In this document: one piece after another, positions 7,160-49,560 of the stretch | Layout of the letters: each line of letters opens with the position of its first letter | Position numbering within the stretch: position 1 is the first letter of the stretch | Origin: Syntrophobacteraceae bacterium | GTDB taxonomy: Bacteria > Desulfobacterota > Syntrophobacteria > Syntrophobacterales > Syntrophobacteraceae | NCBI GenBank assembly: GCA_031292195.1 | Contig: JARLHP010000085.1 | Location: forward strand, 1-51,283 | Direction: 5' to 3' | Length of the DNA: 51,283 nt | Position numbers and translations under genes: made by a program | Notes under the pieces: model-generated | Seen by the model: the letters and a program-made list of their open reading frames with translations, nothing else | What the model was told of the DNA's origin: nothing | Databases searched by the model: none

Positions 7160-7898
7160 TCCCGGCGAGTTCTCTCCGGCAAGGGACGATTATGTGATCG
7201 TAAAAACGGAGCAGGGGGTCGGGCTCGGACAGGTAATTGAGCCGCCCTGCCCCAGGAACCACAATATTCATCCCCGGGAAATAAAGAAAATCGAGCGGAT
7301 GGCGAACGAAGACGAAATCCGCCGACTGGTGGACAACGCCGAGATCGAGGCGGACGCAAAGGCTTTTTGCCTGGAAAAAGTCGCCGCTCACGCCCTGCCC
7401 ATGAACCTTGTGGATGTGGAGTACTTTTTCGACGGCAGCAAGATAATTTTCTACTTTACCGCGGAAGGCAGGGTCGATTTCAGAGAACTTCTAAAGGACC
7501 TCGTCAGGCGGTTGCGCACTCGGGTCGAGCTTCGGCAGATCGGAATCAGAAATCAGGCCAAAATGGTGGGCGGCCTGGGTGGCTGCGGCCGGCCGCTTTG
7601 CTGCGCCACGTTTTTGAAAAATTTTCACGCCGTGTCCATAAAAATGGCCAAGGAACAAAACCTGAGCCTCAATCCCGCCAAAATATCGGGGGCCTGCGGC
7701 AGGCTCATGTGCTGCCTCCAGTATGAACACGAAACGTATAAGGAACTTCGCAAGGATATGCCCAAAATGGGCAAGAAGGTGGAACTGCCCGAAGGAAAGG
7801 GAAAAGTCGTACGCCAAAACGTCATAGGCCGTTCTTACACGGTGCTGCTCGATGACGGACGGGAACTGGAGATCAATCTTAAAAACAGTGACTCGTGA
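7104..7898 (+). CDS. ricT: RicT/YaaT family PSP1-domain protein
   Basis: This 264-residue protein of the PSP1 (RicT) family has the diagnostic cysteine clusters GCGRPLCC (Cys161, 166, 167) and GACGRLMCC (Cys198, 203, 204). In Bacillus these ligate Fe-S centres in the RicAFT complex that modulates RNA processing. Partners RicA and RicF are not in the window, so the role here is inferred only from family membership. Translation starts 56 bp inside holB. The last codons and the TGA stop (7896-7898) lie inside a GTGA heptamer array, so the native C-terminus may have been reset by the repeat. The cysteine core is unaffected. Confidence 0.92.
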   Translation: MEKVIGIRFRKGGRLYHFDPGEFSPARDDYVIVKTEQGVGLGQVIEPPCPRNHNIHPREIKKIERMANEDEIRRLVDNAEIEADAKAFCLEKVAAHALPMNLVDVEYFFDGSKIIFYFTAEGRVDFRELLKDLVRRLRTRVELRQIGIRNQAKMVGGLGGCGRPLCCATFLKNFHAVSIKMAKEQNLSLNPAKISGACGRLMCCLQYEHETYKELRKDMPKMGKKVELPEGKGKVVRQNVIGRSYTVLLDDGRELEINLKNSDS

Positions 7899-8048
7899 CT
7901 CGTGAATAGTGACTCGTGACTCGTGCAGTTGTTAGTGATTAGTGAGTCGAGGAGTGATTAGTGATTGTAGAAGAATCTGATAACCGATCGACACCGATCG
8001 CTTCTCACTGGTCTCTTTACGAGTCACGAATCACGAGTCACGAATCAC
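7888..8048. repeat. GTGA-heptamer array, two opposing arms
   Basis: The left arm at 7888-7922 is five contiguous heptamers of the form GTGACTC or GTGAATA. Degenerate copies follow at 7935-7948 and 7954-7967. The right arm at 8021-8048 is four heptamers on the opposite strand (GTGACTC/GTGATTC), so the arms can pair as a long imperfect hairpin between ricT and metG. The ricT stop codon is part of the second heptamer. Confidence 0.9.
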
Positions 8049-8067
8049 CGCACTTAAAAGAGGCCAA

Positions 8068-47416: not shown

Positions 47417-49474
47417 CTATTCATCCCGCAAAATGGCTGTCAGCTCCGAAATGGTTCTGACGGGATTTTGGCAAGTGAAGTTCTGACAGACGTAAGCCAC
47501 CGGACCGACTTGCTCCTCCCGTACCGAGGCCGTAAAAGGGGCGATTTTGGCCAGTTCCGCCCCCTGTTTTCCGCCGTGTTTGAGCATCAGCACCCGGTTT
47601 GGGCAATGGAGGCGGTGGAGGCTTTGGATCATTTCCCTTGTTCCCGGCGAGGAAAGGTCTCCCGCGACGAGTATCTCCCGGGTGGGACCGTGAGCGAAAT
47701 CGAGGGCCTGCAGGACCTGGGTATAGGCGGCCGGATTGAGGGAAATCTCCGCGGCAAACGATCTCATCAGCAAATCCGCCTTTTTTTCAAATTCCGGATT
47801 TCCGGTCACCCTGCCCAGTCGCAGCAGGTTCATGGCCGCGATGGAATTGCACGAGGGGAGCGCTCCATCGTAGAGCGGCTTCTCAGCCACTATCATCTGC
47901 TCGCCGTCGTTACCCGCAAAATAAAACCCGCCGTCGGAGGCTCCGAAAATCCTGGACATTTCTTCCTGCAGCCTCACGGCCAAGGCGAGATGGGAAACGT
48001 CAAAGCGGGTCTCGTAGAGTTCTATCAGCCCCCAGATCAGGAAGGCATAATCGTCGGCATAGCCGGGATTGGCGGTCTCCGCCAACCGATATCGGCGCAG
48101 GATTCGCCCGGCATCGTTTTGCATTTCGCGTATCACAAAGTTTGCCGCCCGGAGGGCCGCTTCGGCATAGAGGCTTTCCCCCAGCGCCTGCGCGCCCCTG
48201 GCGAGCGCGGCTATCATCAGGCCGTTCCAGGCCGCAAGGATTTTATCGTCTTTAAAGGGATGAACCCGTTTTTGGCGCCCCTCCAGAAGGCGCTTTCGCC
48301 CGTCTTCGAGAAGCTTCTCCAGTTCGGGAAGGGGCATTCCCAGACTGCCGGCAAGTTTTTCGAACGGCCCCGGAATGTGCAAAATTGTCGCGCCATCCGC
48401 AAAATTTCCCCTGGAGGTGATCCCGTAAGCACGACAGAAGATTTCGGCCAGGTCTTTTCCAAGGAGTGCGGCCACCTGGTCCGGCGTCCAGGTGTAGAAG
48501 GCGCCTTCCCTGCCCTCGCTGTCGGCGTCCTGCGCGCTGTAGAAGGCCCCTTCCGGGCTGAGCATGTCGCGAAGAACGTATTCGAATATCTCCCTGGTCA
48601 CTTTGGCATACCGGTCATCGCCCGTTGCCAGGAAGGCCTCGGTATAGGCAAGGGCGAGCATCGCCTGGTCGTAGAGCATTTTCTCGAAATGGGGCTCGAT
48701 CCATTTTTGGTCGACCGAGTAGCGGTGAAAGCCAAAACCGATCTGATCGAATATCCCGCCGGACCTCATGGCCAAAAGGGTCTTTTGGACCATTTGCAAA
48801 CCGTCCGATTGGGGATTTCGCCTATGCCGGCGAAGAAGAAAAACGAGATTGTGAGGCGAGGGAAACTTGGGTGCTCTTCCAAAACCGCCCCAGACCCGAT
48901 CAAAGGATTCGGCCAGGATTTTGTGGGCCATGTCGGCAACTTCGGGGCCCGGTGGCTGGGCCGCGCCCATCGTGGCTCCCGGCTCGATGGCCCGCGATAT
49001 TTGTTCGCTTACCCTGCCGAGCTGCTCCCGGCCGCCAGCCCAGAGTTCGGCGATTTTTTCCGCGGTTTCCATTAAACCGGGCATTCCCATCCGGCTTCTT
49101 TTCGGTAAATAGGTCCCGGCGTAGAAGGGTTTCCTGTCCGAACCCATGAAAACGGAAAGCGGCCAGCCTCCCCTGCCGGTGGCCGCCTGGCAGGCGTTCA
49201 TGTATACCTGGTCGATGTCGGGCCGCTCTTCGCGGTCGACTTTTATGGAGACGAAAAACCTATTCAGCACGGCCGCCACTTCCTGGTCCTCGAAGGACTC
49301 GTGCTCCATCACGTGACACCAGTGACAGGTCGAATAGCCGATGGAAAGGAAAATGGGCTTGTCTTCCAGGCGCGCTTTGCTGAAAGCCTCTTCTCCCCAC
49401 GGATACCATTCCACCGGGTTTTCGGCGTGCTGCAACAGGTAGGGACTTTTTTCGCCTGCCAGACGGTTGGACAT
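47417..49474 (-). CDS. YyaL/DUF255 thioredoxin-domain protein
   Basis: This 685-residue cytoplasmic protein has an N-terminal thioredoxin-like DUF255 domain with [14 protein letters not shown] (CxxC near residues 48-51) and a long C-terminal domain resembling a six-hairpin (alpha/alpha)6 glycosidase fold. Homologues are YyaL and human SPATA20; the biochemical role is not established. AGGAG precedes the ATG at 49474. The frame is open upstream through 90 codons that cross a repeat and the end of pfp, so the longer form is rejected. Confidence 0.92.
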
Positions 49475-49485
49475 CTTATCTCCTG

Positions 49486-49560
49486 GAGCGGGTAGCGGGG
49501 AGCGGGGAGAAAACCCTATTTTTGCTTCTGGCCCCCACACCAGTTCCCCGCTCCCGCTCC
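49486..49560. repeat. GAGCGGG heptamer array between pfp and yyaL
   Basis: Three units (GAGCGGG, TAGCGGG, GAGCGGG) at 49486-49506 face CCCGCTC-type units at 49547-49560, separated by about 40 bases. It fills the gap from the pfp stop to the yyaL ribosome site. Confidence 0.82.

What the first reader, a model, noticed from the sequence alone, without database searches (positions are those of the whole stretch)
7888..49560. Family of short-period hairpin arrays filling many intergenic gaps
At least seven gaps (7888-8048, 19417-19444, 20201-20330, 25518-25671, 32113-32211, 40822-40879, 49486-49560) hold degenerate tandem repeats with period 7 or 8. Most are built as two arms with the units inverted, so that each can fold on itself. 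Two unit grammars are clear: GTGA plus three variable bases, and (G/A)AGC plus three bases. Units differ between loci but keep the period and the fixed first four bases. That looks like local growth of a shared rule rather than copies of one mobile sequence.
Basis: partly seen in the sequence, partly recalled or inferred. Interest (0 to 1): 0.8.

Follow-up and report, generated by a model that had tools for sequence, protein, structure and literature searches.

The report
Heptamer hairpin arrays at gene ends
Short 7-letter DNA words with four fixed and three semi-free letters are stacked into inward-facing hairpins right behind stop codons of this uncultured bacterium; they are a many-worded relative of repeats already described in Xanthomonas and Nostoc, and how they arise is still unknown.

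Summary
The arrays are real. In 582 kb of this genome, windows matching themselves at lag 7 number 33 in gaps against 0.0 in shuffles. GTGA arms occur 46 times in gaps and never well inside genes; where a gene 3' end lies behind the arm, 17 of 19 start within -18 to +14 nt of its stop. Arms face inward: convergent pairs occur in 39 of 247 genomes of the phylum, divergent in 9. Phases 1-4 hardly vary (1-8%), phases 5-7 do (18-49%); GTGA arms fall into two dialects. Both arms of a locus share vocabulary but not unit order. In congeners the same gap may be empty or hold another word. Loops and flanks are not homologous. Arrays also sit inside the S10/spc ribosomal-protein operon, so strong terminators are unlikely. 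Closest known kind: convergent, stop-proximal GGGANTN heptamers of Xanthomonas and GGGGAYT of Nostoc (PMC4692102). New here: several words in one genome, word-switching at one gap, an A-tract cap on many arms. Verdict: new variant of a known kind; repeated local growth under a fixed rule is best supported; enzyme and function are unproven.

The parts
7888..7922 (+). 5' arm, 5 GTGA units, dialect A (GTGA-Y-T-N), overlapping the stop codon (7896-7898) of the PSP1-domain gene 7104-7898
7934..7966 (+). further degenerate GTGA units in the loop
8021..8048 (-). 3' arm, 4 GTGA units (dialect A), 19 nt before the metG start at 8068
19417..19443 (+). GTGA arm, 4 units (dialect A), 8 nt behind the stop of the gene ending at 19408
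19454..19478 (+). terminator-like GC hairpin plus T-run, present in all five congeners compared, that lies between the two arms
   Evidence: by eye
19532..19599 (-). period-8 arm (GTGAATCG on the minus strand) behind the stop of the convergent flavodoxin-fold gene 19604-20182
20201..20228 (+). 5' arm, GTGA dialect B (GTGA-N-S-R)
20229..20239 (+). A-tract cap GAAAAAACCCC at the inner end of the arm
20240..20332 (-). 3' arms, GTGA dialect B, running over the 3' end (20313) of the class-IV aminotransferase gene
25522..25537 (+). period-8 arm ACGCGAAG, divergent gap
25644..25667 (-). period-8 partner arm CTTCGCGT
32112..32139 (+). 5' arm, RAGC word, behind the stop (32104) of the SAM-methyltransferase gene
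32140..32147 (+). A-tract loop GAAAAAAC
32148..32203 (-). 3' arm, RAGC word, 8 units
40822..40838 (+). RAGC arm
   Evidence: by eye
40850..40878 (-). RAGC arm behind the stop (40881) of the methylmalonyl-CoA mutase gene
49485..49509 (+). RAGC arm
49544..49561 (-). RAGC arm behind the stop (49569) of the phosphofructokinase-domain gene
   Evidence: by eye

Best explanation
Each element is a gap-specific, inward-facing pair of short arrays made of 7-base (sometimes 8-base) units with a fixed four-base core (GTGA, or the looser RAGC) and a restricted three-base tail. Shown: most arms behind a gene 3' end start at its stop codon, and many partner arms end shortly before the next gene's start; close pairs are mostly convergent; both arms use the same dialect but not the same unit order; the word at a gap can change between species. 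Inferred: elements arise again and again in gaps by local copying (replication slippage and hairpin-mediated template switching). Re-annealing needs only the four-base core, so any register is allowed, the core stays fixed and the tail drifts within a dialect. Selection removes them from coding DNA, so they survive in the slot between stop codon and ribosome-binding site. Transcribed, they would form register-tolerant RNA hairpins that do not end transcription; any effect would be on message stability or translational coupling of neighbouring genes.
For: Period 7 above shuffles. 46 GTGA arms in gaps, 0 more than 30 nt inside genes; 17 of 19 arms with a gene 3' end behind them lie within -18..+14 nt of the stop. 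Neighbour mismatch 1, 3, 8, 2% in phases 1-4 and 49, 18, 29% in phases 5-7 (runs had to hold two in-phase GTGA, so part of the contrast is by construction). Dialects are bimodal: 20 arms with pos6=T in at least 0.8 of units, 26 arms at most 0.33. Own-arm identity 0.79 against 0.71 for other loci, 0 of 2000 partner shuffles (15 loci); unit order no better than permuted, 127 of 200 permutations reach it (18 loci). Turnover at orthologous gaps: 7 of 31 gap sets hold an array in some species, none of the 7 in every species compared. All 18 two-arm elements fold better than the mean of 40 shuffles, z -1.6 to -11.6. Arrays inside the S10/spc operon.
Against: No growth between strains could be seen. 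Slippage alone does not explain convergent polarity (39 of 247 genomes against 9) or the A-tract cap (21 of 46 arms with AAAA, 2 with TTTT). In contigs taken by number, lag 8 and lag 9 runs are as many as lag 7. Patchiness within the genus (0 to 271 matches) asks for a factor not found. Tight placement at stop codons may be a by-product of ancestral gaps of about 20 nt. In IMG/VR fragments 28 of 174 arms lie inside long ORFs (crude ORF caller).
Confidence: 0.5

Rival explanations
1. The arrays are functional RNA- or DNA-binding sites: a protein reads the fixed core (GUGA or RAGC) every 7 bases and regulates message stability or translation, so selection fixes the core.
For: Position-specific constraint, placement at stop codons, presence inside a ribosomal-protein operon, A-tract cap.
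Against: Congeners whose PSP1 protein is 92-93% identical (G010, G007) lack the array at that gap, others carry another word at a gap, and six of ten congeners have 0-3 GTGA matches; a needed regulator site should not be that disposable. Three words or dialects in one operon. No Rfam match at gathering threshold in the window.
Confidence: 0.2
2. Pure neutral slippage: a heptamer duplicates by chance, expands and decays by point mutation.
For: Heptamers are over-represented among bacterial simple repeats, as PMC4692102 says of earlier work (passages); arms of one locus share vocabulary.
Against: Decay should hit all seven positions equally; it does not. It should produce divergent pairs as often as convergent ones.
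Confidence: 0.12
3. A mobile hairpin (MITE- or REP-like) inserted many times, its arms being the terminal repeats.
For: Empty and filled orthologous sites; an A-tract in loops of both GTGA and RAGC elements; Y1 transposase-family genes in 10 of 11 genus genomes.
Against: Loops and flanks are not homologous; arm unit number and order differ; Y1 gene number does not follow array number (G004 and G008 have 5 each with 3 and 1 GTGA matches; G005 has 3 with 193).
Confidence: 0.13
4. Break-end extension: an unknown enzyme adds units inward to both 3' ends of a break, tails them with A and the ends are joined.
For: Inward polarity, shared vocabulary with independent order, A-tract at the inner 3' side of either arm (8 of 19 arms at gene 3' ends, 13 of 27 at 5' ends).
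Against: No enzyme found: Ku is absent from array-rich G001, G026 and G038; reverse transcriptases track abundance in the genus (5 of 5 rich, 1 of 6 poor) but less outside it, and those classified are a mix of group II and retron types. Only 2 of 15 GTGA pairs have the cap on both arms, 9 on one, 4 on neither. In G000 AAAA is also commoner than TTTT before the first unit (11 against 3 of 46).
Confidence: 0.07
5. Intrinsic transcription terminators.
For: Strong hairpins right behind stop codons.
Against: Arrays lie between rplW-rplB, rplV-rpsC, rpsC-rplP, rpsQ-rplN, before rplF and between rpsE-rpmD of one ribosomal-protein gene cluster; none of the 21 terminator-like hits in 7800-20400, the only part scanned, falls in an array (that scan also missed the conserved hairpin at 19454-19478); at 19409-19603 a separate conserved terminator-like hairpin sits between the arms.
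Confidence: 0.03

Closest known systems
GGGAATC / (GGGANTN)n repeats of Xanthomonas campestris and X. axonopodis (Rehm et al. 2015, PMC4692102; abstract passages, sections 10 and 13 and found passages read)
   Same: Period 7; positions 1-4 and 6 conserved, as in dialect A here (GTGA-Y-T-N); convergent pairs (70 cases in Xcc, 75 in Xac); [quoted passage not shown] mostly between aligned genes, rare between divergent genes; length and sequence vary between related species
   Different: [quoted passage not shown] here GTGA (two dialects), RAGC and period-8 words in one genome, no GGG run in most GTGA units, an A-tract cap, gain, loss and word change at orthologous gaps
GGGGA(C/T)T repeats of Nostoc sp. 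PCC 7120 (PMC4692102 passages) and the cyanobacterial STRR heptamers (recalled)
   Same: Period 7, same conserved positions if read as GGGA-Y-T-G, intergenic
   Different: Only a few inverted pairs reported in Nostoc
Paired octamer and heptamer repeats of Geobacter metallireducens (PMC2700814; found passages only)
   Same: Short tandem units in pairs on opposite strands at variable distance, in another deltaproteobacterium
   Different: Units GTTGCTYN, TCTCCGTS, MTYCTGA; authors propose regulator-binding sites
TAACTGA direct repeats of Beggiatoaceae, Cyanobacteria and Bacteroidetes (PMC4679880; abstract and outline read)
   Same: Intergenic heptamers, patchy distribution over phyla
   Different: In the best-studied genome mostly just upstream of start codons; essentially direct repeats; one fixed word
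REP / REPIN elements with RAYT transposases (PMC3733652, PMC3116915; search listing only, rest recalled)
   Same: Many palindromic intergenic copies
   Different: 20-40 bp palindromes tagged GTAG or CGTC and copied as units; not tandem heptamers

Membership tests
Xanthomonas/Nostoc-type heptamer repeats | tandem period 7, intergenic | tested here: met
Xanthomonas/Nostoc-type heptamer repeats | positions 1-4 and 6 conserved | tested here: met
   dialect A: pos 6 T in 76 of 78 units; dialect B: pos 6 C or G in 80 of 83. The dialects were defined by position 6 and arms by the GTGA core, so the independent part is the bimodality and the phase test
Xanthomonas/Nostoc-type heptamer repeats | convergent pairs near stop codons, depleted between divergent genes | tested here: met
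   15 of 18 close GTGA pairs convergent; 3 of 39 gaps with arms are divergent against 83 of 448 of all gaps of 40 nt or more
Xanthomonas/Nostoc-type heptamer repeats | G-tract units able to form G-quadruplexes | tested here: not met
   GTGA arrays have no G-tract in the core and seldom a GGG run (units); RAGC units do in part; no quadruplex prediction was run
Xanthomonas/Nostoc-type heptamer repeats | repeats are transcribed | not testable with these tools
   no RNA data
REP/RAYT elements | copies share a palindrome sequence | tested here: not met
   no homology of loops and flanks beyond units and cap
REP/RAYT elements | associated RAYT (Y1) transposase | tested here: inconclusive
   Y1_Tnp in 10 of 11 genus genomes, not tracking array number
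Intrinsic terminators | GC stem followed at once by a T-run | tested here: not met
   none of 21 terminator-like hits in 7800-20400 lies in an array; the rest of the window was not scanned
TAACTGA-type repeats | located just upstream of start codons as direct repeats | tested here: not met
   arms mostly in convergent pairs, with 17 of 19 at the stop

The most novel reading that the evidence does not exclude
Each arm is a polar module, (GTGANNN)n often followed by RGAAAA, built inward from both edges of a gap: the scar of a telomerase-like process in which both 3' ends of a break are extended by units re-primed on the four-base core, tailed with A and joined. The core would be the re-priming site, which would explain why mainly the tail varies, why arms face inward and why they share words but not order.
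Probability: 0.07. Interest if true: 0.9.

Novelty: new variant of a known kind. Interest (0 to 1): 0.5.

Why it matters
Heptamer repeats have been noted in far-apart bacteria without an accepted origin or role. This genome and its congeners show several words at once, at gaps where empty, filled and reworded versions can be compared, and separate what is fixed (core, polarity, place) from what is free (tail, order, number). That makes the question of how period-7 arrays are made, and why they face inward, directly testable.

Tried and rejected
Chance: rejected. Inverted duplication of one arm into the other: unit order is not complementary beyond permutation. Intrinsic terminators: rejected on the ribosomal-protein operon and the scan of 7800-20400. 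REP/RAYT: Y1_Tnp does not follow abundance. Ku-dependent end joining: not required. A dedicated reverse transcriptase: presence tracks abundance in the genus (5 of 5 genomes with 38 or more GTGA matches, 1 of 6 with 0-3; one-sided exact probability 0.013 by my arithmetic). Over all 59 relatives 9 of 11 genomes with 38 or more matches have one and 13 of the other 48; array-rich G034 and G042 have none. Of ten such proteins compared with NCBIfam, seven are nearest to group II intron types (three over the cut-off) and three to retron types (two over), and rich genomes are mostly larger; kept as a lead only. Paper search for Deltaproteobacteria with intergenic, tandem repeats, hairpin and stop codon together: 0 papers. 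Rfam on the window: 0 matches at gathering threshold.
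Full report
What was checked. Tandem Repeats Finder and the raw sequence confirm arrays at all seven stated places. One arm was missed: the single arm at 19417-19444 has a partner at 19532-19599, a period-8 GATTCACC array behind the stop codon of the convergent gene, and a terminator-like hairpin conserved in five congeners lies between the two.

More than chance. I took 41 loci (582 kb) of the window's genome, called genes with a simple script (517 genes) and looked in 395 gaps for windows that match themselves at a fixed lag: lag 7 gave 33, lag 14 gave 29, other lags from 2 to 15 gave 0-7, and shuffles gave 0.0 at lag 7. 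Part of these loci had been chosen because they hold GTGA matches. With 61 loci (879 kb) and a looser threshold there were 46 lag-7 runs in gaps against 1.3 in shuffles, and 4 in all coding DNA. Against the reading: in 45 contig stretches taken by number (580 kb, 365 gaps; known array contigs C4, C11, C21, C28 and C31 not in this set) lag 7 gave 11, lag 8 gave 10 and lag 9 gave 12, so the window is richer than the average contig. Genome-wide, GTGANNNGTGANNNGTGA matches 271 times, overlapping matches counted; the tool's control, the pattern read backwards, matches 77 times and in G018 exceeds the pattern, which I put down to AGTG lying in phase in arrays where A precedes GTGA.

Place. In the 879 kb sample 46 GTGA arms (three units or more) lie in gaps and none more than 30 nt inside a gene; RAGC arms are 20 and 2. 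Of 19 GTGA arms with a gene 3' end behind them, 17 start within -18 to +14 nt of the stop codon; the other two are over 1 kb away. Of 27 arms with a gene 5' end behind them, 16 lie 5-32 nt from the start. Gaps with arms: 32 co-directional, 4 convergent, 3 divergent, against 296, 69 and 83 of all gaps of at least 40 nt. At 10 of 17 such gene ends the stop codon overlaps the array; 6 of the 17 stops are the TGA of a GTGA unit. Because empty orthologous gaps are often about 20 nt, tight placement may partly be forced.

Polarity. Within 200 nt, neighbouring GTGA arms are 15 convergent, 2 tandem, 1 divergent; RAGC arms 3 convergent, 2 tandem. Over 247 genomes of the phylum the convergent pattern matches in 39 genomes and the mirror divergent pattern in 9; in this genome 74 against 5 overlapping matches, the 5 all at one locus. 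The IMG/VR fragments fetched by two array patterns (94 loci of 104 stretches matched) repeat this: 20 convergent, 9 tandem, 1 divergent; 48 of 68 arms behind a gene 3' end lie within -21 to +20 nt, 26 of 68 behind a 5' end; but 28 of 174 arms lie inside long ORFs there.

Grammar. In 29 lag-7 runs with at least two in-phase GTGA (a condition that itself favours the core), neighbouring units differ in 1, 3, 8 and 2% of cases in phases 1-4 and 49, 18 and 29% in phases 5-7. GTGA arms split by position 6 into two dialects with little between: A, GTGA-[CTA]-T-[CAG] (20 arms, 78 units, position 6 T in 76), and B, GTGA-N-[CG]-[AG] (26 arms, 83 units). Both arms of a locus use one dialect: identity to the own partner 0.79, to other loci 0.71, 0 of 2000 partner shuffles reach it (15 loci). 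The order of units is no more complementary than after permutation (127 of 200 permutations reach it; 18 loci). So the arms are not copies of each other unit by unit. The inner end of arms often runs into a cap, G then an A-tract: AAAA in the 16 nt after the last core in 21 of 46 arms, TTTT in 2; RAGC arms 6 of 16 against 3; before the first GTGA core AAAA is in 11 and TTTT in 3 of 46, so some of the A bias is not specific to the inner end. The cap is found on arms at gene 3' ends (8 of 19) and at 5' ends (13 of 27), hence a property of the arm and not of the transcript; of 15 pairs 2 have it on both arms, 9 on one, 4 on neither. In the IMG/VR set it is weaker after the arm, 49 of 174 against 12, and absent before it, 13 against 18. 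All 18 two-arm elements fold better than the mean of 40 shuffles (z -1.6 to -11.6).

Turnover. Between the PSP1-domain gene and metG, the window has a dialect-A element, congener G001 a dialect-B element, G005 a single short arm, G002 a two-arm period-8 CACGGAG-like array (read by eye), and seven congeners have no array. Between the two methylmalonyl-CoA mutase genes, RAGC arrays are seen in G000, G005 and G007 (called by script) and shorter or degenerate ones in G009 and G010 (by eye); G001 has a differently worded hairpin, G002 an octamer-like one (by eye), and G003, G004, G006 and G008 none. At 25436-25758 G000 has the octamer, G005 RAGC, G001 none; at 32105-32270 G000 has RAGC and G005 GTGA arrays in a longer gap of 750 nt. 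The gap 20183-20312 is 4-19 nt in five congeners, and at 19409-19603 five congeners keep the terminator-like hairpin without arrays. By script, 7 of 31 orthologous gap sets hold an array in some species and none of these in every species compared (chosen from a window known to hold arrays). Across the genus the GTGA count runs from 0 to 271.

What it is not. Loops (16) and flanks (36) of elements show no homology at E 0.01 except unit sequence, one 13-nt cap match and one pair of adjacent elements. Arrays interrupt the S10/spc ribosomal-protein cluster between rplW-rplB, rplV-rpsC, rpsC-rplP, rpsQ-rplN, before rplF and between rpsE-rpmD, in three words or dialects (gene letters follow from the Pfam families, one operon is inferred from gene order), which speaks against efficient terminators. 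The window has no Rfam match at gathering threshold. Y1 transposase genes, Ku and reverse transcriptases were tried as partners: the first two do not track abundance; the third does within the genus (5 of 5 rich genomes, 1 of 6 poor), less clearly over all 59 relatives (9 of 11 against 13 of 48), and is mixed in type.

What it is like. The closest published case is the (GGGANTN)n repeat of Xanthomonas: period 7, positions 1-4 and 6 conserved, convergent pairs, close to stop codons, rare between divergent genes, with extensive length and sequence variation between two species (PMC4692102; abstract passages, sections 10 and 13 and found passages). [quoted passage not shown] Read in the same frame, Nostoc's GGGGA(C/T)T is GGGA-Y-T-G. 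Dialect A here is GTGA-Y-T-N. Geobacter metallireducens has paired heptamer and octamer repeats with other words (PMC2700814, passages). I therefore file the finding as a new variant of that kind; GTGA words do not meet the G-tract criterion.

How it likely works. Shown: period, core, polarity, dialect, place, turnover. Inferred: repeated local copying in which the four-base core permits re-annealing in any register, with survival mainly between stop codon and ribosome-binding site; an RNA hairpin that is tolerated or mildly useful. Polarity and cap are not explained by this and leave room for the bolder reading of break-end extension.

Noticed in passing
window 36649-37091: About 440 nt of non-coding DNA upstream of the proton-pyrophosphatase gene has similar printed ends and similar length (434-448 nt) in all five congeners compared, with no Rfam match; possible long leader or small RNA.
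   Followed up: no
window 15667-15823: Stretch beside ftsH, called non-coding in the comparison, is strongly conserved in six congeners; could be a small gene or RNA.
   Followed up: no
window 18810-19207: Long leader of a short gene at 19208-19408 whose last 100 nt or so look conserved in congeners (by eye).
   Followed up: no
L019 (G000 C143) 2274-10067: S10/spc ribosomal-protein genes interrupted by at least six hairpin arrays of three different words or dialects.
   Followed up: partly
   Followed up: partly
L290, L308, L318, L343 (one IMG/VR contig, 44,469 bases): A contig filed as viral carries ten matches to a four-core GTGANCA pattern; either a virus with such arrays or a misfiled bacterial piece.
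   Followed up: no
G034 (same order): GTGA matches are 38 forward and 1 reverse, so these are unlikely to be paired hairpins as elsewhere.
   Followed up: no
L023:4326-4558: A gap with an AGTCAAA-like period-7 two-arm array, a further word in the same genome.
   Followed up: no
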